A DNA stretch of 64,000 nucleotides from contig JAPDRO010000020.1 in the NCBI GenBank assembly GCA_030247885.1, positions 186,001-250,000 on the forward strand, written 5' to 3'. The notes below the pieces were generated by a model that did no database searches, was not told the DNA's origin, and worked only from the letters and a program-made list of their open reading frames with translations. This document shows positions 129 through 64,000 of this stretch, one piece after another. Position numbers and translations under genes: made by a program. Positions within the stretch are counted from its first letter, which is position 1, and the number at the start of each line of letters is the position of its first letter. Source of the DNA: Taxawa tesnikishii (nom. ined.) (lineage: Eukaryota; Ascomycota; Dothideomycetes; Dothideales).

Positions 129-2444
129 TTAAACGTGGAAGCCACGAGCGTGGCGGCGCTTCTGAGTGCCATAGCTCTCACCGCCGTAGGCAGCAGGAGC
201 GGAGTAGGTCTCCGGGCTGTAAGTGGCAGAGGCAGCCGTGCTGGAAGCCACAGTGGTGGCCGCAACGACGGAAGAGGTCGAGGTGGCGGTCACAGCGGCG
301 ACAGAGACGGCGGAGCTGGGAGCCACGAACGAGGAAGCGTAGGCGGAGACGGATGGGATGACCGCAGCAGAGGTGGCAGAGGCGGTGGCGGCAGCGACGG
401 CACTGCTGCTGGTCTTGCTGCCCTCAAGCTCGCCGGCCAGGAGGGAAGCGATCCACTCGAGGATCTGCTTGAGAGTCAGGCCGTGATGGCCAGAAGGGGA
501 GGTGCTGGTGCTGCCGTAACCGGCTGGAACGGAGGCGGTTGGAAGGACCGAGGCGACGGCAGAGGCAACAGCACCAGTAGGGAGAGCAGTGGTGAGGTTG
601 GCAACGATGGAAGACACAACAGCTGGGAGATCAGTACCGACTGGGGAGACGACAGAGGTCAGAGCCTCAGTGGGAAGAGCGGAGGTCAGGTTAGCAAGGA
701 TGGACGAGGCAGCGGCAGAGACGACGCTGCCGGTTGGGTAGGCAGTGCGGAAGGGAGCGGTGCCGTTGCCAGCTGGGAATGGGGCACTTGGGCGCTTCAG
801 GGTGACGGTGGAAGTGCAGCTGCTGGAGCTGGAGGCCTGAACGGCGGCAACGACGCTGGAGACGCTGGTGCTAATGGCGAAGGAGGTAGTCTTGACAACA
901 GTGCTGCTAGCTGGGCAGTTGGTCACATCGGGAGCGCAGCTAGTGATGGTAACGACACCAGTGGAATAAATGGTGACGGTGATTGGGACGGTTGGGGCGG
1001 AAGAGATAGGAGCAGAGCTGATCGAGGCAACGACAGAGGAAGCTGGGGCGCTGGAAGAGCCAGTGACTGCGGCGGCCTCAGAGCTGGAACCAATGGTGCT
1101 GCTGTAGCTGGTTGGGATAATGACAACAGACGAGGTGACCGTAGAGGAGATGGTGGCGGTGCGGGTGATGTGGGTGGTGATCACGGATGGGGTGGTCAGC
1201 ACGGTGGTAGAGCCAGAGGTGGTCAGAGTATGGCCGACTGGGCAAGTCCTGTTTCTCTTGTTAGTAGACTGTTACCTTTGTAGCGATACGAAGCACTTAC
1301 GTGACGGTCTCGCTAGTGACCTCAGTGACGTAGACAGTGCCGTAGGTAGCGACAGCAGAGGTGACAGGAGAAGACACGGCACCGATGGCGGTGGAAAGAA
1401 CCGAGGTAGAGTTGCCGTAGGCGGATGGCAGACCGGAGCTGGCGGTGCCAACTGGCGAGACCTCGCTGCTGCTGACAGCGGCTGAGGTGGTAGCAGCGGA
1501 GACAGGAGCGCTGGAGCTACCGGTGGCCGGGGAAACTTCGGAGCTGGACTCAGCAGCTGGGACGGTGGTAGTCTGGGTAACAGTCTGGGTGGCTGTCGCG
1601 GTGAAGGTGGAGGTCTCAGTGACGGTAGAGACGCTGGCCGCGGCAGAACCAGAGCAGGCAGCGGTGACAGTCACAGTGCTGGCCTCGCATGACGAGGCAC
1701 CGTAGGCCTCCTGCCTCTTGGCTGGGGCACAAGCGCAGGTCGAGGCGGCAGCTTTGGTGACGGCGGCGACGGTGGAGGTCTTCTGGACGGTGACGGTGGC
1801 CTTCTTGCTTGAAGCAGCAACGGCGGCAGCCTCCGAGGAGGCTGGGGCGGCAGCACCAGAGCCAGAACCGGAGACAGTAAAATCAATGCAGGACTCGTAG
1901 GTCTGGTTGATGTCTGGGGCGTTCCAGTAGTGCTGGATGACACAAGCGCCGGCGGTGGCACACTGGCTGCCAAGGTCGGATGGGATGGTGACGCTGAAGT
2001 TGAGGTCGTCGGCAGCAACACCAGTGGAGGTGGAAGCGAAGTTGGATGGCCAAGACTTCAGGGTGCTAATGATCTTGTTGTTGGCAGTGCTCACGATGGA
2101 GACGTTGGCGTAACCAGTGTGGGGAGCGCGGACGTCAAAGGTGATAGGAACAACTTGGCCAGGAGTGTACTTCTGGACGTTGGCGGTGTTGTCGGCGTAC
2201 TTGTAACCCTTGCACGTCCATATCTGACACTCGGCGGCGTTGTAGTCGGACTGAGTGTTGGCGACCTGGAGCATACCCTGGACGTTGCCGTAGTTGTCAC
2301 CCATCTGGTTATAGTAGACTTGCTGACCGCAAGCGGCCTCCATAGCGGAACCTGGCATACGGGGCTTGGGGAGGTGATGAAACCGTGACCGGCGACCGTG
2401 GAGGCCAAACCGGCGGCGGCGAAAAGAACTTCGGTGGTCTTCAT
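129..2444 (-). CDS. AA16-type lytic polysaccharide monooxygenase with long Ser/Thr/Ala-rich tail
   Basis: Secreted copper oxidase of the LPMO fold, resembling AA16 enzymes that act oxidatively on cellulose. The ATG at 2444 opens a signal peptide ending in VAG, so the mature protein would begin HGFITS with the copper-binding N-terminal His. The second brace His is probably in RAPHTGYANVS. Other family hallmarks are PGSAMEAACGQQVYYN, CKGYKYADNT and NAPDINQTYESC. One intron lies at 1249-1300 (gtaagt donor, ctaac branch). About 500 residues of low-complexity Ser/Thr/Ala tail follow the catalytic module, with an island GHHGLTLKQILEWIASLL and a basic end at RRHARGFHV; I see no GPI signal or CBM1. 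One base is missing near 2361-2371 (C runs on the coding strand) between HGFITS and PRMPGS; the exons sum to 755 codons once it is counted. The family call is from remembered AA16 sequences. Confidence 0.85.
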
Positions 2445-3460
2445 GGTGATGAGCGAGGAACGTAGTGGTGCTGGCAAGGCAGTGGCAACAAAGAGGAGCT
2501 GTCTACAGCGTGTCTAGCACCCGGCTAGAGTACAAGAGTGGATGAAGAACGAATGTGGTGGTCACAGACCGAAAAGAGTGTAAGGGTGCAGAGACGGAAG
2601 AAGGAAGACGTTGAAGATGATGGTGAGGGGAGAAGAGAACAGAGAGGCAGAAGGATAGGGCGATATATAGATGAACGGGAAGATAGAGAGAGACCTATTC
2701 TTGCACGCTCGTACCATGGCCGGTGCGTTCGGTTTCACACAGGCGGCCGCCGGCATCAAGGCCGGTCGCATCTTCGACAGCACGCTTCTGGGAGCACATG
2801 GCAGTTCCTGCGCTGTGATACGGGTGTAGCAGCGCCAAGGTGACGGCGGTGCAGCGAATTGATGGTAAGGCGATGCTCGAAGCTCGATGCTCGATGCTCT
2901 CGTTTGCATGTTTCCCGACGGCTTCCCCACAAGTCCTGGCTCAATTTCCTCGTGCCAGCGGCTGCAAAACGTCCCCTGATTGACCGAGTGCAAGCCAGAA
3001 GGAGGCGTCGTCTAGTCGAACATCACGTCAGTTGTGTGCGATGAAACGCGGGTCGCGGGCGGATGCAGATGGTGAGGGCTCGAAGTGAGGCAGGGGAAGA
3101 CTCCAAACTCCAGTCCCTGGTGATCCGTTTCACCTTGAGCGAAAGGCGAGACGAGATGAAAGGCGTGCCAAGCATCTCGGAAACACGTCGGGCCAATCAG
3201 CGCAAGCACAAGGTTGCGAGCCGCCTCGAGCCTCTCCCCGAACCTCCATCCCTAACACTTTCAAAGGCATTGTTGCTCATTAATCACATACACCACACCG
3301 CGCCGTAAGCCGCCTCTGTGTCCTTGTTCCAAGAAGCTTGCCTGCTGCACAGGCTGCCTGCTGAGACCAACCGCTCACCCGTCTGCTACCGACAACCTTG
3401 TCTGTTCAGCATCGCACCGCACCGCACCGCACCGCACCGCAAGAAGAGCATGCCGCACTC
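2445..3460. other. Intergenic region between AA16 and cyclin-L-like genes
   Basis: About 1 kb with no convincing gene. It should hold the promoter of the minus-strand AA16 gene and the promoter and 5' UTR of the plus-strand cyclin gene. A short tandem array of accgc units (five copies, about 3416-3440) sits just upstream of the cyclin ATG. Nothing else is recognised. Confidence 0.6.
3416..3440. repeat. accgc pentanucleotide tandem
   Basis: Five copies of accgc in the presumed 5' leader of the cyclin-L-like gene, 21 bp before its start codon. Confidence 0.85.
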
Positions 3461-4418
3461 ATGCCACCCATCCACGGACTGTCGCACCTTACTAACCCTC
3501 TTGCCACGCCCGATCAATTAGCTACCTCTTCATCCCAGCTGGACGGCGTGCCTGCAGATCTCGAAGCCTCAGTCAGGTTTGACGCGGCCATCCTCATACA
3601 GGCTGCGACTACACTGCTACGCCTTCCCCACGAACTCGCTGCCGAGGCAATCGTCATCTTTACCCGATTCTGGGTCGGATCAGATGGAGGAAGTCTCATC
3701 ATCTACGATGCTAAAGTAAGTCCCTTGCGCCGAGCATCTCTCTTCCCGTGCGGGTGGCGGCACCTGATACTGAATTGCCGAATCAGGATGTCGCTGCGGC
3801 CTCCTGTATCTTGTTGCGAAACCTTCAGCACACCCGGTCAGCCCACGAAGCCTGTTGACCGTCTTCGAGTACCTGGACAAGTTTCCACCGAGGCAACCCT
3901 TCAGGCAGGACGCGAGCCCGGAGGACTGTTTCTTCTCCGAGTCATCGTACCAAACAGGACGCAACACCCTTCTCAAGACCGAGGCTCAGATCCTACGTAT
4001 CCTTGGTTATCAAACACATGTTGCACTCCCATACACGTTGTGCATCAACTATCTCCAAGCTCTGGAAGTCTTCGGATCATCATCTGGAAAAGCACTGGCC
4101 AGACGGGCATTTGCCCACCTCAACACTGCTCTGCTGAGTCCCCAGCTCCTTTACCTCACCCATCAACCAAGCGCACTAGCAACGGCGGCTATCTATCTGG
4201 CTGCCAGACAGGTTGAGGTCAAACTGCCTGCCGATGAGTGGTGGGAGGTGTTCGACCTCGAGCGTGAGGAGCTGGGCTTCTTGGTCGTTGCACTCACGAG
4301 CATGACCGGCTTCACTGAAGAAGAATTACGCAAATGGGGGCGCCGGAGGGTGCCGTTGACCATTGAAACCGTCCGCGGTGAGATCGAAAGCAGACGTTTG
4401 CTTGAAACGGGCGAGTGA
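3461..4418 (+). CDS. Cyclin-L-like protein
   Basis: Transcription/splicing-type cyclin, which in this family partners a CDK11-like kinase in the nucleus. Exon 1 (3461-3715) starts MPPIHGLSHLTNP and enters the first cyclin fold at LIQAATTLLRLPHE. The intron is 3716-3786 (gtaagt...cag). Exon 2 carries DVAAAS, then LYLVAK and SPRSLLTVFEYL, then a second fold with ILRILGYQTHVALPY and ATAAIYLAARQVEVKLP. DVAAAS and LYLVAK lie in different frames: one C appears to be missing at about 3803-3804. With it the gene has 296 codons. There is no long RS-rich tail, so the protein is shorter than animal cyclin L. A start at 3398 would need TTG, so the ATG at 3461 is preferred. Confidence 0.85.
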
Positions 4419-6296: not shown

Positions 6297-9200
6297 CTAA
6301 CATGTCTCGCCGCCTCTGCTCAGATCGACGTCTCTCGCCTCAGGCTCGTTCTCGCCCTCCTCCGTTTCAGCACGGGATTCAGATACAGGATCGTGGACCT
6401 TTTCAGTTCGTAAACTCCTCTTCAATTCCTCCTGGATATCGCCCTCCCTTAGCCCTAAGCTGCGGAGCTGCCTAGTGGCCCAGTTCGCCGCCTTTCTCTC
6501 TTCTTCAACAGCCTTGCGGAGTATGATGCGGATAGTCGATATATCAGGCTTGAATCGCACAGCGACGCGGATAGGATCTTGATCTTCTCGGGGAATGTAG
6601 CTGATCCTTGTGTGAGAGGGCTGGTGGACGGCACCTGGCCGCTCTGCAGGCATGCGCGGAACACCCCTTTGTCCTCCTCCAAAATGCTTTCATCAGACTG
6701 GCCAGGGCGCCAAAAGCGATTCAGTAGAGTTCGGCCCTCTACGCTTCCGTACGCATCCACTACACCCTCCAGGACAGTGTTGAATGAGCGAGGTGACAAT
6801 ACGACCTCGCCTTTGATCCTCGAGGCGGTAGGAGGTGGCAAGCTCTCACACAGAGACTTCCAGGCCTTATTGATGCTCGCAAGCACTGCTAGCACCGAGT
6901 ACAGAGGCTTTTTGGGCAAATTCTGAATGCCATACACTTTCCGGACAAAACGGCGCAGCATCACAAATGCTTGGCCGTACTCCCCACGCGTTAGTGGTCG
7001 TGGTTGTCCGTCGGAGTTGCCGAAGACGGCATGACGCGCTTGCCTGAGCATAGCCCTTGCGAGCATTGCCGCGACAAGGTCTGTATACGAGACACTCGGC
7101 GTGTCCAAGAGCACATCCATGATTTTTTCTGCAGCCTCCCAATTTCTTGATTCGAGCTGGCTCTCCAGGAACGACACGAGCACTTGCCCGGAGAAGCGGG
7201 TGCTGCGTTTCCCTCGATCTGCACCTCTAGCTTTGGCGCTCTCCAAGTCGATGATCTTGCGCAAGAGCACTTTGTCCTGAGCCGCGGCGGCAAAGCGGAT
7301 GAGTGCTGGTGCCATGACATCGTCGGCGTACAGCGATTCGGGTATCACGGGGCCGTCGACATCCTGTGCACGGAGGAGCCAGGTTCCGAAATCAAGGGCG
7401 CCGGCGTCCACAATCAGATCTAGCAGCGGCGCTAGAACTGTAACCGGGAGTTGCATGAAGAAGTTGGGGTATTCGATACCGGCATATTGGCTCTCGAAAT
7501 CTAGTCCAGACGGAGGGTCGGGGTGTAGTGCCGAGTTCAAAGGATCGACAGATAGCCCTTTAGTCTTCTGGAAGAAGGCTTCGATGGATCGTTGCTTGTC
7601 CTGATCGGTGCGTTTTTGAAGAGCGTTGAGAACGCGCAAGGCGCCGCCGAGGTTTCCGACGCGGATGTAGGCTTGCAAGATACGATGGGTGAGGCCTAAC
7701 GGAGCAGCGGTTCCGTCGTGGATGTACACGGGCTGAGGCTCCCATTGTTCATTACGCGCCGGAGAGTTTGTGGACCCAGGTTCCTGTCCGAAAGGCGATG
7801 AGAGGTCGATTATCCGTTCAGCAAGTCCGGGCTCCACTTCGATATCGACGCCCTGCGATTCGATGATGCGCAGGATGATTGAGTCCCATGACATCGTACC
7901 CAAACTGAGATTGTTGGTTTCGAGGAAGCGTTTGAGCGTCTGTAGCAGCTGCACGATCACGCCGGGTGCAGTACCTCGCACTCCTACACCAACCCTGACG
8001 ATGTTGATCAGGGCATCTGCGTATGCTGCCACGACTTCGGCACTCACTGTCCGTCTGACCTTTTTCCGGATCTCAGCGTTCAGTGTAGGATTACCATACA
8101 CGGTCCCACTGTTGAGGAGGTACCTCACTTCGTTCCAATCGACAGAGTTCTCCTGCCCGGCACGCACGATGGGTGTCACAATCTCGCGCCAGGATAGTAT
8201 CGGCCATCTCTGTGGATCCTTCTGTCGAGCGACCGCGCCGAGAACCGATGCCCCGTCCAAAATCCAGCCGCCGTGCAAGCACGACCAGAGCACTAGTTCA
8301 AGCCAGATCTCGTGCCCTAGCCCGGCAATCCGAACATTATACTGTGATCCGGGTATTTCAGGTCGGGACGCTGCATATGCTCCACCTTTTGCGCGAGCTT
8401 CCTCGACAACCGATTTTTCGTGTGCTTTCCAGGCGGCATCTGAGAGCGAGGTGAGAATGTTTGAGGACAGCAAATGCAGCGTCGGAGGCTGCTGGAGGGA
8501 AGTCGCTTCGTCCGAAGGGGTATACGAGTAAATGGACTGTGGCATGAACCCGCAATGGTGCAAAAGCGCAATGATCTCGAGGATTTCCGGTGTGATGGTG
8601 TTCTCTTTGGCAGGCTTACGAGCCGCGTCAGCTACGATCATGTTTCCCAAGCTCCGCCATATTTGCCCGAGTAGTTGATGGTCTGCACGTGGGTTCTCAC
8701 GCGACATCAACGGTTTGTAGAAGGGATTGGAGGTTGCAGTCACGCCGTCCAGGCTCTCTTGTTCTGCTTGTATGAAGGAAGCCGTCTCTTGGTAGCGAGT
8801 CCCAGTGCGCGTCGCGGTCAGCTCGGTGAGTGAAGCCTGTCCATTCCATATCCCCGGCAGGCTCCTCCGAGGGGTTTTGGCGCCTTCCAGATGTTGTCCA
8901 CCAGGTGTGTCACCAGCCAGACGACGGCTCTCCAACGACCTTTCTCGATGCCCAAGTGCGTGAGCAAGTCAATGCCGTGAGAGGCGTTTGCCTGTACCAG
9001 TATGGAAGCAACTTCTCTGGGTGTCAGGCCTAGGGTAGGTGAGGGACCTCCTGCCTGCACTGTTCGTAGACGGGCGGGGAGCGCATTTTCGAGGATGACC
9101 GTCCACGAAGAGGGATCCTTGCGTCGCGGCCACGGTGGCAGCTTCTCATCGGGCACGTGGGAGCGCAGAGACTGCCGCACTCGCCGTGCGGTAGATGCAG

Positions 9201-12191: not shown

Positions 12192-13425
12192 TCATTTCAT
12201 AGCATCGTCCAGCCCGTTCAGAATCCTTTGCGCCTCTTTCACCAACTCCTTTCTTCTTGCCCTGGCCTCTGGATCCCCCTCTGTCTCCACAGCGTCCAGC
12301 TTGAGCAGTACTTGCGCAAGCACAGTTTCGCTCAACTTCTTGTGCTCAAACTCTTTTTGGCTGGATCAGTGGGTGGGGAGAGGGTGAACTGCACGCACAA
12401 CGGTAACAGCTCTTGCAACTTGTGGTGCAAAGCGTCGAGTTTGTCAATGGGTGCGGAGGGGGTCGGCGCGGGCTTCGGACTCGGCGCACGCGATGTCTCT
12501 GACGGTGGGACTGGGAGGGTATCGACCGGTGTATCCGCGCCTGAGCTTCCACCGGCCCTCTTGCCCTTCTTCTTACGATTCCTGTTGCGGTTGCGCTTCC
12601 GCTTCGGTGTCTCGCCTTCTCCCTCCAACGGCACTCCATCATCCTCCCCATCATCTTCGCTATCACTCGATTCTGCCGGCGCGTCTCCAACCGTACAGAG
12701 AATTTCCGCACCGTCCCTCAGCCCCATGGCGCGACACGTGCGCTCGTCGTCCTTGAGGTTCTGACCCCTGTACAGGAGCTTGATCCTCCTCGCATCCGCA
12801 GCACCGACTTTCTTCGCCGCTTGCTCGCGCACTTGTCCCACCTTCAACTCACCTTTGTCGATACTATACGCCGGGAAATGTACGGGGTACGAAATCCTCT
12901 TGTTCTTAAGAATCAGCACGTCAGTATCTCTCGGCGGGCCGGTAGGTTCGGAAGCGTGCTTTTGAGATCGTCGGAGGTGATGTAGCTAAAATCCGCGTCG
13001 GAAACCTGAGTGGAAGAGGTTGGGGAGGATCGCCCGAAGGGGCTGAATTGGCCGGCGTATTTCGAGAATCGCGAGGACCAGGACATGATAAGGATGAGGA
13101 AGGCGAGGGTTGCGAGAACGAATCCGCTGTTTTCGAGAGTGGATCGGGAAGAGATGTACTTGTAGGCTTCGTACCACAAGTCCGAAAGGTGGTCTTGTAG
13201 GGTAGGCGTAGCGGGCGCAGCGGGTGGTGAGTTTTCGGTAAAGGATCGCAGGTAGGTGAGGATTTTTGGTGTGCGGAGGTCACGCTGGGAATTGGCGAGG
13301 CCGTGCCTGTGATGCGCTGAATGACTGATGTAACTGCTGCGGCCAGCTTGGCGGTGTTGTCGTGTAGCTGTGGTGGGTGTGATGGTGTGTATATGTGTTC
13401 GTGTTCGTATGAGAAATTCGGACAT
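12192..13425 (-). CDS. Membrane-anchored ubiquitin-like/BAG-domain co-chaperone
   Basis: BAG proteins act as Hsp70 nucleotide-exchange factors; the membrane-anchored form recalls yeast Snl1. Order: N-terminal region, transmembrane segment [16 protein letters not shown], linker with [18 protein letters not shown], ubiquitin-like domain ([18 protein letters not shown] ... [18 protein letters not shown]), acidic and KRKRNRNRN linker, then a BAG helix bundle ([17 protein letters not shown] ... [16 protein letters not shown]). The frame breaks twice: near 12936-12942, before [12 protein letters not shown], and at 12354-12358 (five T on the plus strand), before EFEHKKLSE. With one base added at each, 12192-13425 gives exactly 412 codons. 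The start at 13425 (MSEFLIRT) is tentative; another ATG lies in frame at 13524. Confidence 0.8.
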
Positions 13426-15219: not shown

Positions 15220-16128
15220 ATGGTCCACAAGGCAGAAATCGCGATTTCGACCGGAGGTAAAGGTACGTTCGTCGTTTTGTACCGTTCCAAGAAGTGAGCA
15301 CTGTTGCTCAAATCCACAGATCGGTTGTCGCAAGCCGTTGATACCCTCGCGCCCGAATTCGTGGATGATCCGGTCATCACTTGGCTACTCCACGATCTCT
15401 CTCCGACGAAACGAGATGCTTACTACCGCTCACTGTTTGTATCCTTGCTGACAGCGGCTGCTCTCAATTCTGCAAGCTTTTGTGAAGCGGGTGATTGGGG
15501 GTCATGTCTCGTCTTGATGCATCCCGGAGACAGAGTGGATAACCCAAGGACTTGGTGGGCAGCTGGTTTGCCCTCTGCTCTCTGGAATCTTGGAATATCA
15601 CCATGTCGAGTGAGTCTGCACGGCGGGACACAACGGAATTCGTCTAAAAGATTACTAGCGGATCTTGTTCGGATATCCCGGAGCAACAGAAGGAATGAAA
15701 AAAGAGCGTTGAAGGATGAAAAGAGATTCTTCTATATCTTCTTCGTGGCCACTCGGTCTGACTCGCGAGGGCGAGGGCTGTGTTCTGCTTTGATAAGACA
15801 TTGTCAGCGCGTGGCCGAAGCGGAGAACTACCCACTCTGGTTGGAAGCAACAACAGCGCATTCGCGAGACGTATATGCGAAAGAGGGGTTTAAGGTTGCC
15901 GAGCAGGTTGTGTTGGGCGAGGGTCAGGTGGACGCAGACGGCAAGACTAAGAAGAATGGCGAGGGTGTGACGGTTTGGGGCATGGTGTGGCGATCAGAGA
16001 AGAACGATGCAGCGGTCACGGATGGTGCAGATGGTGCAGATGGTGCACATCTGACTTTGGAGACTGGCCCGGCTCATCACAAAGTTCATCCAGATGACCG
16101 TTTCCGCCGAGGACCAGCGCAAGGCTGA
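15220..16128 (+). CDS. GNAT-family N-acetyltransferase
   Basis: Acetyl-CoA-dependent acyltransferase; substrate unknown. Three exons: 15220-15262 (MVHKAEIAISTGGK), 15320-15609 and 15659-16128. The second intron (gtgagt...ttactag) was hidden by an accidental open frame; splicing joins LGISPCR to RILFGYPGATEGM, as expected for the family. Acetyl-CoA binding is indicated by FFYIFFVATRSDSRGRGL followed by CSALIRH, and the end of the fold by YPLWLEATT and YAKEGFKV. One base is missing in the six-A run at 15698-15703 (EGMKK to ALKDEKRFF); with it there are 268 codons. The C-terminus contains a 9-bp tandem encoding DGADGADGAH. Confidence 0.85.
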
Positions 16129-19431: not shown

Positions 19432-20563
19432 TCAATGAATCTTTCCGATCCTCTTCTTCGCCACATCAATCTTCCCTTGCACACGGTCGACGTCCTGATC
19501 CAGCAATCCCAACATCCCGTTCTGCACAACAAGCTCCTCGTTGATCATAATACCCATCTCCTTCATGCGGCTCACGGCCTTGCCCAATTCCAACACATCC
19601 TCCTCCTGCTCCCGCATGACCTGCTTCTGCATTTGCAACACGCCGTTGTTGTCCAACTCGCGCGTGCGCTCCGTCTCCTTCATCGGCCCGCCCAGCACCC
19701 TTCCAGTCTTCTGCGCACCCGACTGAACCCCGTCCCCCGCCACAGCGCCTCCTTATCACCCTGCGTCGCCGCCGCCGCGCCAGCAGAGCTGCCACCTGTG
19801 CTGCCGGAGGAGCTGTTCTTCACGCTCATACTCCGCATCACGGACTCCAGACCCTCAACCTCCTTACGACTCGCACTCAGCAAATCCCTCCTCCGTCTAA
19901 TCTCGCCCTCACCAAGTCTCTCCCTCCCCAACCCCCATCATCTCCCTTCTCCTTGCCCAACTGCTTGAGCCCGTCCTCCAACCTCGCTATCCCCGTCGCC
20001 GCACGTACGAGATGCGCCTTCGCATCAGCCGTGAGTCCATGCTGCTCCGCCGCCGTCTTCGCACCCTCCCGTTTCTTGAGCGTGAGCCGCGCGTTGTGAA
20101 TATTGGTCTTGACGTCTCTGTGCACGTCCAACCACATCCTCTCGTCCATCATGTCCCGCCCTCCTCCCAAGCTACTCTGCCTTCCCTTGCCCTTGCTCTC
20201 GCTCCCCAGCACCCCGCTCGGCAAGTCCAACCACCCGCGCCACGCAGCACAGGCCCTCCATCTCGGATCCTGAGCCTCCAGGATCGCCTGCAGATACGCT
20301 TCTAGCTGCTTCCGGCGTTCCTCGGTTTTGTGTGTGTTGTTCACGGTGCTGCCGAACCAGGATTTGGCGGGTAGGGATGCCGGAGGCGGTTGTGATGTCT
20401 GTTCGATGAGCGAGGTGTGCAGGGAGAGGAATTCGGAGAAGCGTTTCCGGATTTCGTGGGTCCGGAGAGGGAGGGTCAGGGTGATGTGATACAGCGTGTA
20501 AGGTTTGCCATTCCCCGAGGCGGTCGAGGTCGTTGGGATGGTGATCTGGAGCGGTGGTGGCAT
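19432..20563 (-). CDS. VAM7: Vacuolar SNARE Vam7 (PX domain plus Qc-SNARE)
   Basis: Soluble SNARE recruited to the vacuole by PI3P, where it completes the fusion complex with Vam3, Vti1 and Nyv1 orthologs. The PX domain fills residues 1 to about 125 (KRFSEFLSLHTSLI, KTEERRKQLEAYLQAIL). A helical linker follows, then the C-terminal SNARE heptads REQEEDVLELGKAVSRMKEM and INEELVVQNGMLGLLDQDVD, with Gln of VVQNG as the likely zero-layer residue. There is no transmembrane anchor, as in yeast Vam7. Two bases are missing, both at C runs on the plus strand (19926-19936 and 19728-19738); with them the unspliced length is exactly 378 codons. Confidence 0.88.
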
Positions 20564-23988: not shown

Positions 23989-24080
23989 GCACGACCAGGA
24001 AGTGCAAAGGTGTGGCGTACTGAGTCAAGGGCATGGCTTCTCTCCCAAGTGCCACCGGAAGGTGGGTTCTGTTGTACAAT

Positions 24081-43516: not shown

Positions 43517-45290
43517 TCAACCGTTGATCAACGCCTCAACCTCCTCCCACGTCCTCGGCGCCGTTGTCAGATTCTCACACCCATCCTTATGCACCAGCAC
43601 GTCATCCTCAATCCTCACACCGCCAACGTCCCAATACCTCTTCAAAACTTCCTCATCGATAAAACCCTTCAACCTCTCGTCCTTGAGCGCGGGTTCAACA
43701 ATGAACCGACAGAAATACACGCCCGGTTCAACCGTAATGACCGCACCCTCGGGCACCTTACCTCTAACCCGCAGGTAGCGGAACATATGATCCGGATCGT
43801 TGTAGTTAGCATTTCCACCCGTATCATGGCAGTCCATGCCCAGATAGTGGCCCAGGCCATGCGGGAAGAAGACCGTACTGACGCGGCTGGCGAAGACGTC
43901 TTCCTTGTCTCCACGCAGCACGCCGAGGTGCAGCAGCCCCTCGATGGCGACCTGGTGCGCGGCCGAGTGCACGTCCTCCCACTGAACGCCCGCTCGCAGC
44001 ATCCCCATGCACACGCGCTGCATCTTGTCCACGATATCGTAGATTTCGCGGCTCTCCTTGGTAAATTTGCCCTTGAGCGGGTACGTGCGCGTGATGTCGG
44101 CGCAGTAGCAACTGTACTCGCACCCGGCGTCGATGAGCAGGTTCAGTTTGTTGGAGACGGGCAGGTCGTTGTGCACGTAGTGCAGAGTGGCGGCGTTGGT
44201 GCCGGAGGCGCAGATGCAGCCGTAGGCTTGCTCGCGTCCGCCGTTGGAGATGCAGGTTCCGACGAACGTGCCCATGAGTTCGGCTTCGTTCTGGGCGCGT
44301 CGGACCATGCGCATGACTTCGGTGTGCGCGTGGCTGGAGATGGCGTTTGCGTGCCGGATTAGTGCGATCTCGAAGGAGTCTTTGACGACGCGGCAGGTAT
44401 CGATCGCGGGCTTGAGGAGAGTGAAGTCCGTCTCGTCGAAGCTCAAGAAAGTGACATGGTCGGATACCTGATTGGGAATGGCGAGAATCGTGCTGTGGGG
44501 TGTTTCCTTGGAGGAGAGGTGGGAGTTGATTTGCGACGAGGGAGACAGTCGTCGATGTCGTAGAGCTTCATGGCCTCAGAGACGGTCGTTGGCATTCCGG
44601 ACCAGATCACGTCTTCGGGATCGACAGGCGGGATGAAGAGAGTGAGGTGCGATTGCTCGATGTCGTAGGTCAAGTATGAGTCCGGCAAGGGACAGCCGGA
44701 CAGGTAGAAAAAATAGCGGCGTTGGCTGGTTAAGGTCAGAACGTTCGATCAGTAGAAAAGAAGCCATCCAAGCTAAGGCAGAGAGAACACAAGAGGAGAG
44801 TTCAGGTTAGCTGTGCCGTCCATAGTACAGTAAGAGATACGATATACGAGTTCGTTGAAACGGCACGAGGTATCGAAAAGCACGCCCTAAGGTCTCCACT
44901 CTGGGCAGAAAAGGCAAAGCAATGATGAAGAGTAACGATGAGTCTCGAGACAGACAGGCACAAAGACTTGAAACACCCGTGATAACAGAGAAGTGAATGA
45001 TATCCCTGTCAAATACTCACCGGAAGTGCATAGCCTGGTCGTCGTCCTACAACCTCGTCAGCTCATTCGCAGGACATCCTAGAACATCCCAGGGCAACAT
45101 GGTTCTCCCTTGCTGAAGCTCCACTCCACTAATTTACCTCTACCATCTTCGTTTTCTGCCCCTCAAGGTAGATGACACCTGAGGTGGGCCCGCCGTTGTC
45201 ACGGATGTAGTCGGCAACTCTCTTCGCGTGGGCTTTGGCAGGATATCTGCCGCTCGGTGGAGGAGGGAGATCTGGATTGGCGAGTGGCAT
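43517..45290 (-). CDS. pepP: Xaa-Pro aminopeptidase PepP (M24B)
   Basis: Cytosolic metallo-aminopeptidase removing residues N-terminal to proline. Three exons: 45138-45290 ([20 protein letters not shown]...), 45021-45046 (26 nt, DDDQAMHFR) and 43517-44725, the last after a roughly 295-nt intron. Family blocks: [33 protein letters not shown], then the pita-bread fold with metal ligands in [52 protein letters not shown] and [12 protein letters not shown]. One base is missing at 44540-44542 (GGG on the plus strand), joining LYDIDDCLP to [12 protein letters not shown] and [14 protein letters not shown]. With it there are 463 codons, the usual length for fungal PepP. Confidence 0.93.
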
Positions 45291-45752: not shown

Positions 45753-46710
45753 TTAATCCGCCCATCTCTTAAGGAACTTGGCCATGTCGTTGTTCGAGTT
45801 CGGGTTCGAGACTGGCGAGGCCTGGTTCTCCACACTGCTGGCACTGAAGGTCTGAGATGCGGTGATGGTCGTCACGATCGACGGCTTCGGTAGCCAGGTA
45901 GTCGCAATGGTGAAAGCGGAGGTTGGGTGGAGCGGTGTAGGGCTCTTGGCGGTGATCTTGGTAGGAGGAACTGGCTGCATTGGTGCGTATTTGGTGAGAC
46001 CGGTCTGGAGCTGGTAGGGGACAGTGAAGGCGCTGGCTGCTGGAGCTGCGCCAGCGGCAGCACCGTTGGACACAGCGTTGATGGTGTCAGGACCTGCGGT
46101 TCCGGTAACTCCTTGAAGTCCGGTGATTACGGTTGCTGGGAAGACACCAGTCATGCCCGTGAGGGAAAAGCGAGGAGAGAAGTTTGTGACTGTTCCGCCC
46201 TCGGAGGCTACAGAGATCATCTTGAGGAAGCTGTGACATGTTAGGGACGTGGTTTGGCGTATAGGCTACGCGAATCAAGCAGCGTAGAGACTGAAATGCA
46301 TACTATGCGTTCGTTGTACTCGCGCCGAGGCCTGAGGCGACGGTCGCTGTGGCTTTGTTTCCATTTGCGAACACTCCGTTGGCAACCAAAGTCGACAATT
46401 GAATCTGTACGAGACACTTGGTCAGTTCTGGTCTTCGAAAACAAGCCCTCCTTGTGTATGTGTGTTCTCAACGTCCCCTCTCTTGTATACCAAAGATAGC
46501 TTACATAGGATCCGTCCTCGTTTCCTCCGGCGCAGAGGAACAGCTGGTATGAAGTCAACTCGCTCAGTGCTGGAGAGTCGCCCGAGTCCGCCCAAGTGAT
46601 CGAGAGTGATCCTGCTGGCAGTGCAGCTCCAGCAGCGGGTGTTGTGAACTTGACATCGGCAAGCACGGTGGAGGCGAGCGCGCCGAGCAGGGAAGGAGTG
46701 AAAGCCGCAT
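45753..46710 (-). CDS. KRE9/KNH1-family cell-wall glucan assembly protein
   Basis: Secreted, Ser/Thr-rich protein family required for beta-1,6-glucan in the fungal wall. Three exons: 46505-46710, 46304-46404 and 45753-46230. The ATG at 46710 gives MRLSLLPLLGALASTVLA, a good signal peptide, if one base is restored at 46690-46692 (GGG on the plus strand). Then ADVKFTTPAAGAALPAG, DSGDSPALSELTSYQLFLCA and, across the introns, IQLSTLVANGVFANGNKATA and KMISVASEGGTVTNFSPRF, the KNH1-like Ig domain. The tail is Pro/Thr/Ser-rich and ends NNDMAKFLKRWAD, without a GPI signal. With the base, there are 262 codons. Confidence 0.87.
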
Positions 46711-47569: not shown

Positions 47570-49120
47570 CTACTGGCCACCGAGGGATGGGAAGGCCTGG
47601 TTGTCCGAGATGTTGACGGCGGGTCCGTTAGCACCGCCCCTGCCACCTCTGGGTCCACGCTCGCCGCCACGCTCGCCGCCACGCTCGCCGCCACGCTCGC
47701 CGCCACGGTTGAAGTCGCCACGGCCACGGCCACGGCCACCACGTCCACGACCTTCACCGCGGAAACCACCCTCGCCGCGTCCACCACGTCCACGTCCGCC
47801 ACGGAATCCACCCTCCTCACGGGATGGCTCCACCCAAGCCTGATCGATGTCAAGGGTATTCTTCTGCTTGCGCTCACGGTTGCGTCCAGCCTTGCCGCCG
47901 GAGCCGGCCATGTAGTTCTCCGCGTCAGCGTCACGGCTGAAGGCCTTGCCCTCGGGGAACTTCTTGGAAGAGCCCTCGTTGGGCTTGCGAGCCTCAAGGG
48001 CGCTGCCACCAAGAGCGGCCTTCTTCTCAAGCTGCTCGGCCAGGTACTGCTCGTAGGACTTGGTCTTCTCCTCGACCTCGGCCTCTTGGGTCACTGGGAC
48101 ACCGTTCTCGTCGATTGGGGTGTCATCGGCAACGACAGGAGTCTCAGCCTCGTCCTTGCGGGCGTCAGCCAGTCCGGCGGTCTCGTCGGCGAGCTCGCCC
48201 TCGCCGGTCTCAGCGCCCCAGCCGTGGGCAGCCTGCTTCTCGTGCTCACTGTTCTGACGTTAACCCAGCTTTCCAAGGCTTGCGAACGGGTATACTAACC
48301 CAACGCCGGTACGGCTGTGACGGTCGTCACGGGCGGTGCGGGTACCCCTCATGCCCCTGTCACCATAGCTCTTACCACCACGGGAAGTGCGGTTAGGGCG
48401 GGCGTTGATGTCGCGGTGCTCGTTTGGTTCTGAGGTGAGAGTGAGCGACGAATTTGAGGTGGACCGTGTGCTCGCGACTTACGTCTCAGACGGTCAGGGT
48501 GACGGTCCTGGCGAAGGCCATCGTCAACTGGACGGGAGCGGTTGTTGAAGCTTCCCACGTTCTTATCGCGGGCGGCTGCAGTTAGAGGTCAGCAATGTTC
48601 CACAGACAACCCGCATATAGGCACTGTATAGATGCAAGAGATATATGACGTTTTGCGTCCAAAGCACGTCGTGCTACACACCTTGCTCAGAGCCGGTGAA
48701 GACTTCATGCCTTCCACCACGTCCGCCGCCAGCGGGCCTTGAACGTCCCTTTGCGGCCCCTCGGCGCCTGCGTTGCGCTTACCAGCACGCTGGACCGGCT
48801 TGTCAATGACCTTGGTGGGCGGCTCCGGTTCCCTGTCAGGGTCGAGCTCTGGGTCGTTGCCTGAGATTGAACGTTAGAGAAGCTCGGCGCTGATTGTCTG
48901 ATGAGGTTGAGATGTACCCAGAAGCTCGTAAAGGTTCTGTCGAAGCGATAGAGGTCAGCGACTGTCTTGGGGAAGCTGGGGAAAAACCGCGATGCAGTGG
49001 ATTTGTCGGGTTCTGCGTGCTCATGCCAATTGGTGCTGGCATTAAACAGTGTGCCAGCACGGATTGACATGCGACGATGGATGATGTACATACCTTGCTG
49101 GCAATGCCTCCTGTACTCAT
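47570..49120 (-). CDS. Stm1/HABP4-SERBP1-type ribosome-associated RGG protein
   Basis: Ribosome-binding factor of the Stm1/SERBP1 family, which clamps or preserves idle 80S ribosomes. Six exons: 49094-49120, 48918-48936, 48682-48860, 48483-48575, 48296-48429 and 47570-48253. Start MSTGGIASK, then NLYELLGNDPELDPDREPEP, the family N-terminal motif. Then GRSRPAGGGRGGRHEVFTGS, RSRPVDDGLRQDRHPDRL, and EVEEKTKSYEQYLAEQLEKK with ENYMAGSGGKAGRNRERK. The end is an RGG box with GGER repeats and NISDNQAFPSLGGQ. One base is missing at 48757-48760 (CCCC on plus); with it there are 379 codons. The fifth donor (gtatac) is the least certain boundary. Confidence 0.85.
47656..47703 (-). repeat. 12-bp minisatellite in RGG box
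   Basis: Four tandem copies of cacgctcgccgc on the plus strand encode RGGE repeats in the Stm1-like protein. The copies are identical at DNA level while flanking RGG codons vary, so copy number may be polymorphic. Confidence 0.85.
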
Positions 49121-49594: not shown

Positions 49595-49668
<74 letters not shown>

Positions 49669-49923: not shown

Positions 49924-52900
49924 TCACGCCTTCATTGTGGCCAGGAACCCATCCAGGTTGAACTCCTCCTCGTACTGCTTATCATCCCAGAGCTCCGTAA
50001 GCTCATCCAGTATACCCTTTCTCCCCTTCTCTCGCACGTTACCTTGTTCGTCGACAGCATCGTTCTCGTTAACGCCGTTGGCCTCTTTGCCCTTTTCCTC
50101 CAGTGACAGGTTGGGATCCGTTTCTCCCAAATTGAAGAGGTCAAGGAGTTGGTCTGTGTCCATTGTGCCAAGGCCAGCATTTTGCTGGTTGACCACTGTG
50201 GAGGCGACGTCGATCTTGAATCGTTGCAGGCTGTTGATGTGAGGTTAGCAAGACACCCAACCAACGGTGGGAGGCATTGAACGCGACTTACTTCAAGATC
50301 TTCTCCTCTAGCGTTCCCCTCGTGATCAACCGGTAGACGTTGACGACCTTCTTTTGGCCGATACGATGGGCGCGATCCATGGCCTGGATGTCCTTCTGTG
50401 GGTTCCAGTCGTGCTCCACGAAGATGACTGTATCGGCGCCGGTCAGATTCAGACCGAGACCACCGACGCTGGTCGTCAAAAGCAAGCAGTCAATCGAAGG
50501 GTCCGAGTTGAAACGGTTCACAATGTCTTGGCGTTTGGAGGCCTCGACACTACCATCGAGACGAGAGAATGTCACGCTCGGCAACATCTTCTTGAGAACC
50601 GTGTTTTCCACCATGTCGAGCATCTCCTTCATCTGACAGAAGATGAGCGCACGGTGGGGCGAGACCGCCTGGTCGGCGGTGGGAACTTCCTGAGCGTTTG
50701 CGGGTGTATTGGATTCAACGCCGATACCACAGTCGACAAGCAAGTCCCTGAGCGCCGTGAGCTTAGGCGCGTGAACGGGATCTTTCAAGCTGGAGTTTTG
50801 TTTGGCAAGGTACGCTTGGATGGTAGCATACTGCTTGTGACCTTCTTTCATGACAAGCGCAGGCGAGTTACACAGCTTGCGCATGTACTGCAACGCCTGG
50901 AAGATGTGTTGCTTGGCCTCCTTGTCGCCCGAGCCAGCCTTTTCTTGGAGGGTCTTGCCTTCTTTGCGAGTGAAGTCTTCGAACAACTTCTTTTGAAGCT
51001 CACTGAGATCACAGTAGTAGTTCTGCAAGATCTTCGGTGGGAGATCGTTGAGCACCTCTTCCTTCAACCGGCGCAAGAGGAACGGAAGCACTTGCTTGTG
51101 CAACGCCTCGATGGCGAGCGCGCCCGCTTCTTGCTCCTTCGAAGATGACTTGCTGAATCTAGACGCTGCAATGGGCTTTGCGAAGCGATCCTGGAACACC
51201 TTTTCCGTACCAAGGAAACCTGGCATGAGAAAGTCGAATAGAGACCAGAGTTCCAAAACGTTGTTTTGAATCGGAGTTCCAGAAAGAATCAACCTGTGGT
51301 TGCTAGCAAGGCGCTTTACCGCTTGCGTAACCTTGGCCTTAGGATTCTTGATCAGATGGCCTTCGTCCAGCACGCAGTAATTCCAATTGATAGGAGCAAG
51401 GATGTCTGCGTCGTTCCTACAGATGTCGTAAGAGGTAATGACGATATCTGCCTGGGTAAGCATCGAGCGAAATCTTCCACGCTCACCAGGCGGGCCGACA
51501 TATGCGACAGCGGTCAGGAAGGGTGCATATGTCTTGATCTCCTGCTGCCAATGACCAGAAAGCGTCGGTGGACAGACGATGAGGGATGGCAGTCGGCGCA
51601 TGTCCGGAGATTGCATTTTGGCGAACTCCTCGGCACGTATGTGGTGGTCACTGGCCACGATGCAGAGGGTTTGCAGAGTCTTGCCAAGTCCCATATCATC
51701 GCAAAGCACACCGTGGAGATGATACTTGTTGAGGAAAGCAAGCCAGTTAACACCGTCCTGCTGATAGGAGCGCAACTCTGCTTTGATAGCCACAGGGATT
51801 TCGAATGGCTCCACTTTCTTAGGATCAAGCATCTGGGCAATGAACTTTCGCTCACGCTCCCGTCCTTTAAGCAGCTCTTCAGATAGACCAGGAGGGTCGG
51901 GGATACCAGCCTCCAATGGGACAAGCTTGACGAGCGTGGCAAATGCTGTGGTGGCAATGAGACGAATGCCATTGTCGGAATCGCTCATGCGTCCCAGAAC
52001 CGGTACAAGCAAGAAGATAACGTAAGGCAGGATACGGTCCTCCATGACCTGAATAAGGTGATAAATGCATTCGATTGCACCCTGTCTGCAGTGAACGTCG
52101 TTCGCGTTGTTGATTGGTGGTAGGACCTTCTCGACGAGCATTGTAAAGCCCTTGACGGTGATGACACTGCAGATACTAGCAAAGCACTTAGCTGCTGTAT
52201 ACCGCAAAACAGCAAGGCGTGTCTGGAGAGCCTTGGCAACGTATGACATGAGATCCAGGACGAGGCTGTGAAGGTCAGAGTGGAACGAAGGCACTAGAGC
52301 ACGGAGAGTAGACATGGCGTCCACGACTTCTTGACCGGTCTCGTTGTCAGGATCCGTAATGTCCGATGGCAGCTCCTTGGTAAAACAGCGCTGGATGGGT
52401 TCCTCGATGAGCGTCTTGAGCATGGGTACCTTGGTGAATAGTTCGCTGCCGAACATGCCGCACAGCTGCTCCAGCGCTTCCTTTGCACCGCGTCTGGTAA
52501 CACGTGCCTTCTTGACTTCCCGTTCGTACTTCGCAGCGTCGGGCCGGTCCTGGATGTCCTCATCCTTCTGGAGTGATAGAATGCCAGCGTCTTTGTTTGC
52601 GTTGGGGTGGAATTCGGGCGTTTCACCGGTTTCCATGCAACAGAACTTGACTAGGTTGCCAACGATCTTGTCGACCACCTTCATGCGTCCACTGTCGACG
52701 AGTTGATCGATAAGCCCAGCAATGGCGGCGGCGGACCGTTTCTGGAGTTCAACATTCTCTTCTTCCTTTGCGCTGTCCATCAGGCCTCTGATGGTCAGCT
52801 GGGGCTTCTTTGGTATGTCGCGGAGGGCTACAATAGCAGCAGCTGCCGCTGCCTTAATGCGCACATCACGCTGATGCTTGATGTCACCGGCCTCCGTGAT

Positions 52901-55828
52901 GACGGCTACAGCATCCAATCTGGCACTGGTTAGCATCTCAGTAGCAGTTACGCGCTGAGCGGGTGACAAGGTCTTCTTGAGCCTTTCAAAGTCTGCATTG
53001 ACGATGCGTTCACCGTCGGCAAGGGAAAATGCATTCTTTCCAGCTTCCGGCTCGCCCTGGACGACAACGGCAATGGTCGGAAGTTTGTTAGGAGGAACAT
53101 GAGCTTTGTCTCGGAAGGTATTGAGCAGTACCTGGCATTGCGCACGAACAATCTGCAAGTAGCTGGTCAAGTCACTGTAGAATGGTGGACGTTCATCCTC
53201 GATCATAGGACGTAGGTTCTCCACCAAAGCTTGCGCCACATCATCCTTGGCCTCTACGGACTTGGCGTACTCTTCAGCAACGATGACCGCGAACAGTTGC
53301 GTCGTGGAGTAGGGCGAACGAAGGTTGGGCAGGATCCAAGGCATGAAGGTTGCCGATCTCGTCTGTGCAGGCCACAAACACATGGCTTTAGCCAGAGCTT
53401 GTGCAGTGAAGACCCTCGACCTGATCATGACGTCCGCTCCAACAAGGTCCACATCGCCCTGCATCATGTGCCCATCGATGTTGTGGGACGATGTGATAGG
53501 AGGAGCCATGTCTTTCTCCTTCCTGTCTGATCTGCGTCTTTTACGGGTAGGCTCGGAAGTGCCATTGACTGGTGATTGTCTGCGGGGTGCGTTTGCCAGA
53601 GGAGCGTAGCTTGAGCCGGAAGGACGTATGAACAAGGTGGCGTCCATAGGTATCGGGTGACGAGAAACACCGACAGGATGCATGGTCAACGTCAAAAGAG
53701 GGGCAATGTGCGGGCCGAACTCCACAGCGAACGCATCTGGGCCCATAAGGCTGAGCCTAGCAAGCAACGCCTGCCAGACTTGTAGTGATAGCTTGAGGAC
53801 AGGCTCATTGCGTTCGACGAGTAGGTTCTGATAGACGAGACGCAACGCTCTGCCGTTGACCCAGCTAAGAGTATCCGTTCCTTCGATATCAAGGAATGTG
53901 AGCAGGGCGCGCAGAACAGCGGAGCGGACTGAAGTGATAGTGTGCCGCAAGAATGGGTAGAGACGCGGGACCAGTTCGGTGAAAGACTGCTCGGGATCTT
54001 CCGCAGCATTCTTTTTCATCGCATCCAGCACCTCGGGGAAACTGCAAAGCTTGGCCAGCAAATCCATCACTGAGCCGGTACTAGCGCTGAGATCATCGCT
54101 GAGATTCGAAAGGCATTCCCAGACCACGCTGATGAGATGGTGGAGTGCAGTACCGCGCATGTTGACAAACTCTTTGGCGACTGGAATCAGGGTGGCGGCA
54201 CTCACAGCGCGTACATCATCGTCGTTGTCGCCGAGACCCTTAATGACACACTCCAGAACACCATCCATCAAGGAGCTGTCCTGCAACAGCAGGTCGCTAC
54301 GCACGGCCACGAGATACCGCATGCCTATCATACCGCCATGGCATGCGTGCCAGATGCGCTTGCTAACCTTGAGATCTTTCTGCATGACTAACCGGTAGAG
54401 GATGCGATTGACAGCATGCACCGAAGAGGCTGGAAGATACTGCAAGATCGCTCCTAGAACCTGTCCAGCAGTTTCTCGGATCGGTGCAACAGCGTTGTCA
54501 GAGACGTAGTCAGCGAAGCGATCAAGCATGAAGACGCAGCACAAGCGACAGGCAAGATCATCTAACCAAGCTTGGTTCAGGTGATCGTTTTCGGTGCGAG
54601 TCTTCCCAAGCCTACGTCCAGCACCTGCACCATGGACTCGAACGATCTCTCTGAGGCCCATGGCTGCACCATGTCTTATCTCCCATTGGTGGTCAAAGAG
54701 GTCCACCGTCAGGAACTCGCAGAGCCGCTCGAACGGCCACTCTACGCCTTCCTCTTCAGCCTCGGTCTGAAAAGTCGACTTCTCCGGAACCGGCATTCCC
54801 TTGAACTCTGACACAACCTTGGTGTCGTCATCAGTGGCGCCATTGCGCTCGAGCGAGAAGTAGTCGTTGGTGTTTCCATTTTCTTTCTCTTCCTTCACCT
54901 CCTGCTTGACATCCGCGTCCAACGGGGTTTGTGCAGTGCTCTCTCTTCGGCCGCCGGCGAAATCGTACTTGAATTTCTTGTTATCGCGTTTGAGTTCCTC
55001 TTTGCGCCTCCGCTTCAGCATGTTGAGTTGCCTCTTGCTCATAGCTTCCCCTGCAGGTGTTTGGGCTGTCGAGTCGCCACCAGGAGACATCACGGCGACG
55101 TCACTACCAGGTGCCGAAATGCTGTTGTTCCGAGAAAGGCCGGTGTCGAGCTTGGCTGGGGTCGGGAAAGAGGTTCTGACAGCGATGTCCTTTTCGGTGA
55201 CAAGCTCCTCTTCGATGTACTCTCCGCCAAGACCAAGTCTTGCCGTCAGACTCTTTTTCTGGTGGGCGAGCCTCTCCGCAGGGCCCATACCGGCAAGCTG
55301 GAAGTCGTACTGCTTTCCGGCACTGCCAAGTAGTTCCTTACCATGGGTCAAGATTGCTTCGACGTCCAAGGTCTCAAGGCGCAACTGATCCTCGGCGGAT
55401 TGGGCAGGGCCTCCCTCTTCCTTCAACGGGATGTCGCTGAGATGGTCGCCATTGGTCTCATCCTTGACCGGTGCTTCATCGGCGTTGGGGTCAAACTTGA
55501 CTGCATGCTCGACAATGCCGCCGACGGCTTTGGCAGCTGCAGTCCTGGTGTCCCATGATGTCGATCTGAGATAAGGGACGACACGGGTGAGAAGATTGAA
55601 CAACTCATCGGGGTGATTCTTCTGGACGTCGGCAAGTTGCTGGGCAGCGGTGTTGCGGATGAGTTGGGTGCTTCCAGTCTCAAGCAAGCTGTGATGCAGT
55701 CAGCGGCATGCAGTCAAGGGAGCAGAGTTAAGATGGCATACATCACTAATCTATCGAGCCTGCACGTGACGTGTTAGCGCAAAGCAACATGGCGACCTAT
55801 AGGATTGCACAAACCTGGAGGCGCTCAT
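49924..55828 (-). CDS. MOT1: Mot1/BTAF1, TBP-displacing Snf2-family ATPase
   Basis: Removes TATA-binding protein from DNA using ATP. Four exons: 55815-55828 (14 nt), 55742-55759 (18 nt), 50292-55688 (5.4 kb) and 49924-50230; 1912 codons with agreeing phases. The N-terminus is MSASRLDRLVILLETGSTQL. HEAT repeats fill roughly residues 1-1250 (WDTRTAAAKAVGGI, YVSDNAVAPIRETAGQVLGA). The ATPase has DDMGLGKTLQTLCIV (Walker A), DEGHLIKNPKAKV (DEGH box), RLILSGTPIQNNVLELWSLF, then TTSVGGLGLNLTGADTVIF and MDRAHRIGQKKVVNVYRL. The C-terminus carries NLDGFLATMKA. The very long exon is intact, which contrasts with the neighbours' single-base gaps. Confidence 0.97.
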
Positions 55829-62939: not shown

Positions 62940-63257
62940 TGTTTAGATTTTGGTCCGATGATGAGTTGGTGAGTTCGTTGATCCAGTTGAGATGTAGGTT
63001 GCAAGCTGATGCATGGAACAGAGAGAACGAAGGATAACGGCAATGGTGAGGAGTGAGGAGCATGTGATAAGGCGGCCGTCTCCGGCCCAGGCTGACCTGC
63101 GCTAGCTAGGCACGCTAGGCTCGCCCCGCAAGGTGAAGTGAAACCTGGGACCTTCACTCCTATTGTCTATCGGAGCGCGCTAGATGTACCTTCTTAATTT
63201 CTGTCTTCGCAGGACCGATCAGCGTCACCGATGAGTTGTACCACCGGACAATAAGCA
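62940..63257. promoter_or_regulatory. Divergent promoter region ISN1 / MED17
   Basis: 318 bp between the start codons of two divergent housekeeping genes. Both promoters must be here; no element is called. Confidence 0.5.
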
Positions 63258-64000
63258 ATGGCAACCATCAACGGCACTCTACCACCATCGCTACAGCCAT
63301 GGCCGCGAGACGATAACGAAGATCAGTCGCTAAAATACATCCTTGGACGGGTACAAGCGGAACGTGGACATTTTCGCAATGTTACCGAAGAGAGTCTGGA
63401 GAAAGAGATGGCGGATGGTACAACAAGCACAACAACTACGGACGAAGAAGAAGACGAAGATGAGGATAGCAAGGAGCCGGATACCAAGACCCGGCGGGAG
63501 GAACTCTGGATCGCAAGGAATGAAATGCTGCAGCAGGTCTCGTACGTGTCACAACGAGCAATCGTAGCGGACCACCATGCTCACTAGTTGCAGATCGGCG
63601 CACAATGAGGTTTTGCTCGCACTGGATTTTGTCTCCCTCCTGCTCAGCAAAGATGCTCCCAAGAACGGAGAGGCCACTATGTCGCCGGCTCTCAAGCAAC
63701 TAATTAAGCCCGGAACCCTTGGAACGGATGTTTGGCAAGGCACAAATCCCTTGCGCACGAGAAGAAGCAAACAGATGATACAATATCCAAGGGCTGGAGG
63801 ATGCAGTTCTTGCAGAACAGTGCAGACTCACTCCTCAGGGCGGCTTCCCGATTGCAAGACAACGTGAAAAGAGAGACTCAGTATTGGGAACAGGTGTTAT
63901 CGCTTAGCGAAAAGGGCTGGTCAGTCTGCCGCATGCGCGGCGAAAGACACAATTTAGGCGTTCGATATGGTTTCTCGGAAGCGTATGGAGAGTTCCGGGA
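63258..64000 (+). CDS. MED17: Mediator complex subunit 17 (partial, 5' part)
   Basis: Head-module Mediator subunit (yeast Srb4) linking activators to RNA polymerase II. Exon 1 (63258-63541) begins MATINGTLPPSLQPWPRDD and has an acidic run TTTTDEEEDEDEDSKEPD. A 52-nt intron (63542-63593; gtacgt donor, ttgcag acceptor) precedes SAHNEVLLALDFVSLLLSKD, then PKNGEATMSPALKQLIKPG, SKGWRMQFLQNSADSLLRA and TQYWEQVLSLSEKGWSVCRM with GVRYGFSEAYGEFR-like sequence at the window end. One base is missing at 63748-63750 (CCC), joining GTNP to LAHEKKQTDD. The gene continues beyond 64000. An alternative acceptor (tcactag) would add two residues. Confidence 0.9.

What the first reader, a model, noticed from the sequence alone, without database searches (positions are those of the whole stretch)
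2361..63750. Sixteen same-sign single-base gaps in twelve conserved genes, nearly all placeable in homopolymers
One missing base is needed in AA16 (about 2361-2371), cyclin L (3803), PPR-like (6664; 8871-8878), BAG (12354; about 12936), GNAT (15698), VAM7 (about 19730; about 19930), gamma-adaptin (26693; 28939), Zn2Cys6 (34674-34690), PepP (44540), KRE9 (46690), Stm1-like (48757) and MED17 (63748). None needs a base removed. After counting them, every gene's coding length divides by three and family motifs run continuously. Random pseudogenisation would give both signs and substitutions, and would not spare MOT1, CE15, ISN1, EB1 and ARE. Uncorrected long-read consensus error is the simplest explanation; any annotation made directly on this sequence will split these genes.
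Basis: partly seen in the sequence, partly recalled or inferred. Interest (0 to 1): 0.85.

Follow-up and report, generated by a model that had tools for sequence, protein, structure and literature searches.

The report
Nanopore base-loss errors breaking fungal genes
About every two thousand coding bases, this desert fungus's genome sequence lacks a single letter, most likely because the sequencing machine misread it, so ordinary genes look broken although the living fungus probably has them whole.

Summary
The window lies in the Taxawa tesnikishii JES_119 assembly, a desert-crust black fungus sequenced mostly by Nanopore (194.58x; Illumina 25.38x). Of the 16 breaks, 5 are confirmed with homologous proteins, 5 with Pfam or PDB matches, 4 only by a homology-free frame model, and 2 (KRE9, Stm1-like) rest on my reading. 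All 16 lack a base. In 19 stretches from 19 contigs the model finds 26 missing-base and 1 extra-base switches at its strict setting, while recovering planted deletions and insertions equally (30 and 33 of 62). 'Nearly all in homopolymers' is overstated: 9 of 16 sites have a run of four or more within 8 bases (1.5 expected). Two public gene models bridge breaks with introns that homologs contradict, and lose N-termini. The strain's Illumina assembly has more complete BUSCO genes (97.4%) than the Nanopore one (92.9%). Reads could not be mapped.

The parts
2361..2371 (-). AA16/LPMO_10 gene: frame break just after the start of the mature domain, C4 run
   Evidence: model call at 2373
3795..3810 (+). 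cyclin L gene: frame break, only a run of 2 nearby
   Evidence: PDB cyclin-L1/L2 match across the break; model call at 3802
6656..6674 (-). PPR-like gene, C-terminal frame break
   Evidence: 110 of 119 homologs switch frame here, 9 without match on a side; HSPs
8860..8884 (-). PPR-like gene, N-terminal frame break, A4/C4 runs
   Evidence: 110 of 119 homologs, 9 without match on a side; model call at 8860
12346..12362 (-). BAG-domain gene: break inside the BAG domain, A5 run
   Evidence: BAG profile 2-76 joined, 29-76 downstream piece, none upstream
12930..12962 (-). BAG-domain gene: N-terminal frame break
   Evidence: model call at 12962; frames
15690..15703 (+). GNAT acetyltransferase gene: break at an A6 run, downstream of an intron read at 15610-15658
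   Evidence: 9 of 9 homologs score higher with intron plus break
19722..19748 (-). VAM7-like gene (PX domain), C-terminal break, G5/G4 runs
   Evidence: model call at 19748; frames; PX domain
19922..19940 (-). VAM7-like gene, second break, G5/G4 runs
   Evidence: model call at 19936; frames
26684..26693 (+). gamma-adaptin: N-terminal break; public protein P0001 lacks everything before it
   Evidence: 119 of 119 homologs; P0001 sequence
28932..28953 (+). gamma-adaptin: hinge/ear break at a C4 run
   Evidence: 119 of 119 homologs; Adaptin_N and Alpha_adaptinC2 in different frames; model call at 28934
28933..28988 (+). GC-AG 'intron' of 56 bp implied by public model P0001, straddling the break; homologs encode protein here
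6601..6752 (-). GT-AG 'intron' of 152 bp implied by public model P0121, straddling the break near 6664; homologs align into it from both sides
34660..34690 (-). Zn2Cys6/Fungal_trans gene: break after the Fungal_trans domain
   Evidence: model call at 34665; domains
44532..44550 (-). aminopeptidase P gene: break between AMP_N and Peptidase_M24 parts
   Evidence: model call at 44548
46682..46700 (-). KRE9 gene: break in the signal-peptide region
   Evidence: read by eye; domains
48749..48765 (-). Stm1-like gene: break near the N-terminus, G4 run
   Evidence: read by eye; Pfam not discriminating
63735..63755 (+). MED17 gene: frame break
   Evidence: Med17 profile 115-168 in one frame and 167-213 in the next; model call at 63743
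50288..55699 (-). MOT1-like gene, intact 1803-aa frame (control)

Best explanation
The breaks are sequencing and consensus errors. Nanopore basecalling (Guppy 3.4.4) lost single bases, preferentially in short homopolymers, and the final consensus was left uncorrected at these places although about 25x Illumina data existed. The genes themselves are ordinary and presumably whole in the fungus. Shown: the frame breaks, their sign bias, its spread over many contigs, the enrichment at runs, the sequencing platform, and the damage to two public gene models. Inferred: that the missing bases are present in the DNA, and that the Nanopore step lost them.
For: Contig and scaffold lengths match strain JES_119. 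ONT 194.58x versus Illumina 25.38x; BUSCO complete 97.4% in the Illumina versus 92.9% in the Nanopore assembly of this strain (Table 2 of PMC11195213, passages; methods section 12 read). Homologs agree on the frame switch and its sign: 119 of 119 twice, 110 of 119 twice with none contrary, 9 of 9 for GNAT. Unselected frame model: 26 missing to 1 extra in 100 kb of predicted coding sequence from 19 stretches (binomial P 4e-7), with at least one event in 12 of 19 stretches. Planted errors are recovered equally for both signs, with at most 2 of 62 of wrong sign. Homopolymer enrichment: 9 of 16 sites against 1.5 expected; at unselected missing-base events 15 of 52 against 9.3% of random coding positions. 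The same kind of defect is described for Nanopore-only fungal assemblies, where BUSCO overlooked it (PMC7500977, passages); homopolymer length errors are the main Nanopore consensus error after Dcm sites (PMC6591954, passages).
Against: Seven of 16 sites have only runs of 2 or 3 within 8 bases, less typical of homopolymer under-calling. The assembly is called hybrid (MaSuRCA with Illumina), which should have limited such errors. In the sister strain JES_115 of the same paper BUSCO is higher for Nanopore (92.6%) than for Illumina (90.2%), so that comparison is not one-sided. PMC7500977 saw more insertions than deletions after polishing, so the sign depends on the pipeline. The run-length spectrum is not diagnostic: the G/C drop from length 5 to 6 (149 to 5) has a parallel in 50 kb of E. 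coli (14 to 1). Eighteen loci not used for training gave only 2 to 0 (strict) and 9 to 3 (looser, P 0.15), with some loci overlapping.
Confidence: 0.96

Rival explanations
1. The lesions are real: the strain carries single-base deletions, and the genes are decaying pseudogenes.
For: Taken alone, the sequence shows broken frames in 12 genes.
Against: One sign only; breaks in core genes such as MED17 and gamma-adaptin; protein on both sides of the gamma-adaptin breaks stays 74-84% identical to P0002; the same bias on many contigs; higher Illumina BUSCO completeness for this strain.
Confidence: 0.02
2. The genome is right and the fungus restores the frame during expression, by -1 ribosomal frameshifting or by transcript slippage at homopolymers.
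For: Nine of 16 sites are at runs of four or more, where slippage is conceivable; the sign is uniform.
Against: Contexts differ (A, C and G runs; seven sites with runs of only 2 or 3); annotated proteins of relatives run through the places without interruption (proteins only, their DNA not seen); rate of about one per 2 kb of coding sequence; higher Illumina BUSCO completeness.
Confidence: 0.01
3. The breaks are unrecognised short introns or reading errors of the first reader.
For: Introns do shift frames in these genes: read in KRE9, GNAT and gamma-adaptin; the public models use introns at two breaks.
Against: At both gamma-adaptin breaks the compared flanks lie 6-9 bases apart and at both PPR-like breaks 34 bases apart, too close for a usual intron; Med17 profile segments abut; the introns implied by the public models delete residues that homologs have. 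In the strict model any GT-AG intron of 42-130 bases cost less than a direct switch, and direct switches were still chosen.
Confidence: 0.01

Closest known systems
Homopolymer indels in Nanopore-based fungal assemblies (Drechmeria coniospora, PMC7500977, passages seen)
   Same: Frameshifts in conserved genes, mostly at homopolymers, partly hidden from BUSCO; corrected there by short reads
   Different: There, polishing introduced more insertions than deletions; here deletions dominate
Consensus error profile of Nanopore basecallers (PMC6591954, passages seen)
   Same: Wrong homopolymer length is the main error outside Dcm sites
   Different: Bacterial benchmark; here 7 of 16 sites have only runs of 2 or 3

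Membership tests
Uncorrected Nanopore consensus deletions | Produced from Nanopore reads | tested here: met
Uncorrected Nanopore consensus deletions | Excess of missing over extra bases across contigs | tested here: met
   26 to 1 strict, 52 to 12-15 looser over 19 stretches; controls; replicate of 18 loci 2 to 0 and 9 to 3
Uncorrected Nanopore consensus deletions | Located at homopolymers | tested here: inconclusive
   enriched (9 of 16 against 1.5) but 7 of 16 have runs of only 2-3
Uncorrected Nanopore consensus deletions | Absent from short reads of the same strain | not testable with these tools
   reads not held; indirect: BUSCO 97.4% Illumina versus 92.9% Nanopore for JES_119, but 90.2% versus 92.6% for JES_115
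Programmed -1 frameshifting or slippage | Common slippery motif | tested here: not met
   run base and length differ between sites, judged by eye and counted; no formal motif search was made
Programmed -1 frameshifting or slippage | Break conserved in the DNA of relatives | not testable with these tools
   only proteins of relatives were seen; 119 of 119 gamma-adaptin homologs are listed as proteins covering both sides
Pseudogenes | Both signs of indel and loss of protein conservation | tested here: not met
   single sign at all 16 sites; 74-84% identity to P0002 on both sides in gamma-adaptin

The most novel reading that the evidence does not exclude
The deposited bases are correct and the fungus routinely recovers the frame by transcript slippage or -1 frameshifting in a large share of its core genes.
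Probability: 0.01. Interest if true: 0.95.

Novelty: not a real feature. Interest (0 to 1): 0.15.

Why it matters
It is a practical warning. At roughly one lost base per 2 kb of coding sequence (estimate), many gene models of this public genome are probably truncated or carry invented introns; two were shown here. Statements on gene loss, introns, signal peptides or pseudogenes in Taxawa tesnikishii should wait for short-read correction. If instead the bases were right, it would be a startling case of wholesale frame recovery, which reads would settle at once.

Tried and rejected
The first frame model (order 4, trained on 41 long ORFs) found no switches; retraining and a sweep of penalties were needed. 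Ratios depend on the penalty: at the loosest settings 25 to 12 and 28 to 14 (window), 99 to 59 and 97 to 58 (stretches). The window alone at the strict setting gave only 3 missing to 1 extra. The planted-error control used ORFs partly from the training stretches.

Homopolymer length spectrum as proof of compression: rejected after the E. coli comparison; no fungal DNA control was available.

GNAT first looked like a refutation, because homologs align in one frame through the site, but with 13-16 gapped residues; the scored comparison reversed this.

P0008 gave one long tblastn match through the second gamma-adaptin break in one frame (68% identity); tested by flank it switches frame like the others.

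Counting breaks in TCP-1 and HSP70 genes by family search was given up, because introns could not be told from breaks; one abutting frame change of missing-base sign (my arithmetic) is in the HSP70-family gene at C3:494622-494625.

Three extra-base calls of the model in the window (16064, 37119, 59104) and two missing-base calls at no listed site (13299, 18355) were neither confirmed nor excluded; 16064 lies beyond the end of the GNAT homology.
Full report
What the sequence is. The window is bases 186001-250000 of contig C13 in an assembly of 29,367,862 bases in 34 contigs. A protein search with gamma-adaptin returned as first hit a protein of Taxawa tesnikishii (nom. ined.) on a contig of 697,599 bases, the length of C13. 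The species paper (PMC11195213; abstract, passages and methods section 12 seen) gives for strain JES_119 a largest scaffold of 2,828,030 and an N90 of 558,687, which equal contigs C1 and C17. The paper lists 38 scaffolds and 29,383,553 bases, slightly more than held here. The strain was sequenced with Nanopore at 194.58x (Guppy 3.4.4) and Illumina at 25.38x; the hybrid assembler was MaSuRCA, and section 12 names no short-read polishing. BUSCO completeness for JES_119 is 97.4% (Illumina) and 92.9% (Nanopore); for the sister strain JES_115 it is 90.2% and 92.6%, the other way round.

The 16 sites. I read all three frames around every site. In every case the frame falls by one position, as a missing base would cause. 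Independent support differs. For gamma-adaptin, the best frames of the flanks differ in the missing-base sense for 119 of 119 listed homologs at both breaks; for the PPR-like gene for 110 of 119 at each break, the other 9 having no match on one side. For GNAT, a model with an intron at 15610-15658 and the break scores 10-21 bits better than straight reading in 9 of 9 homologs, and better than an in-frame skip in 9 of 9. Pfam and PDB matches support cyclin L, MED17, BAG at 12354, PepP and AA16. The homology-free model alone supports BAG at 12962, both VAM7 sites and Zn2Cys6. At that setting (looser, F -6, X -7) 10 of its 13 missing-base calls in the window lie within 40 bases of a listed site, an eleventh (6575) is 89 bases from one, and two (13299, 18355) match none; it also made 3 extra-base calls. 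KRE9 and Stm1-like rest on reading alone; for Stm1-like the Pfam scores do not discriminate.

Is it general? A Viterbi model with six coding frames, explicit GT-AG introns and equal cost for missing and extra bases was trained without homology on 19 stretches of 10 kb from contigs C2-C20 (one of them C13; the AT-rich C1 stretch was dropped). At the strict setting (F -8, X -4.5) the stretches gave 26 missing to 1 extra, at looser ones (F -6) 52 to 12 or 15; 12 of 19 stretches had at least one strict event. When single-base errors were planted in intact ORFs the model recovered deletions and insertions alike (48 and 45, 30 and 33, 35 and 37 of 62 at three settings), with 0 to 2 of wrong sign. 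The bias is therefore not made by the method. Eighteen further loci not used in training, some overlapping, gave 2 to 0 and 9 to 3, the same direction but not significant alone (P 0.15). With the observed recall the rate is about one lost base per 2 kb of coding sequence (my estimate).

Homopolymers. Within 8 bases, 9 of 16 sites have a run of at least 4, against a mean of 1.5 in random draws of 16 coding positions (P 0.00025); 4 of 16 have a run of at least 5, against 1% of positions. Five sites have only 3 and two only 2. Unselected missing-base events show a weaker enrichment (15 of 52 against 9.3%), as their positions are imprecise; extra-base events gave 3 of 15. The overall run-length spectrum proved undiagnostic.

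Damage to the public annotation. The public gamma-adaptin model (P0001, 757 aa; nearest relatives 841-847) starts after the first break and implies a GC-AG intron of 56 bases at 28933-28988 over the second. The public PPR-like model (P0121, 730 aa; the three nearest relatives 924-939) starts at 8641, downstream of the first break, and implies a GT-AG intron of 152 bases at 6752-6601 over the second. Homologs encode protein through these places, so the introns are very probably prediction artefacts. Public models of the other ten genes were not looked at.

Conclusion. The simplest and best supported account is uncorrected Nanopore base loss, a defect described for other fungal assemblies (PMC7500977, passages; PMC6591954, passages). 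Real decay or frame recovery during expression is not formally excluded without reads, but both conflict with the sign bias, its spread over contigs, the conservation on both sides of the tested breaks and the higher Illumina BUSCO score of this strain.

Noticed in passing
window 5595-5608: A run of 14 G, followed after one T by 5 more G, where no other run in the 254 kb counted exceeds 8. Possibly an artefact of short-read poly-G calls (recalled idea, untested).
   Followed up: no
L002 (C1:100001-110000): Ten kilobases at 23% G+C where the other stretches have 48-57%; perhaps a mutated repeat or centromere-like region; dropped from the frame model.
   Followed up: no
C3:494622-494625 (partly in L036): HSP70-family gene whose two profile segments (29-265 and 265-420) abut in different frames with missing-base sign.
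   Followed up: partly
window 9971-11152 (+): Open frame with two matched stretches of the PARP-type zinc finger.
   Followed up: no
protein P0157: A Sphaceloma murrayae relative of the PPR-like protein bears the public name 'AP-1 complex subunit gamma-1', which looks like a mislabel.
   Followed up: no
PMC11195213: The abstract calls one species Cladosporium tulheliwenetii while the title says Coniosporium.
   Followed up: no
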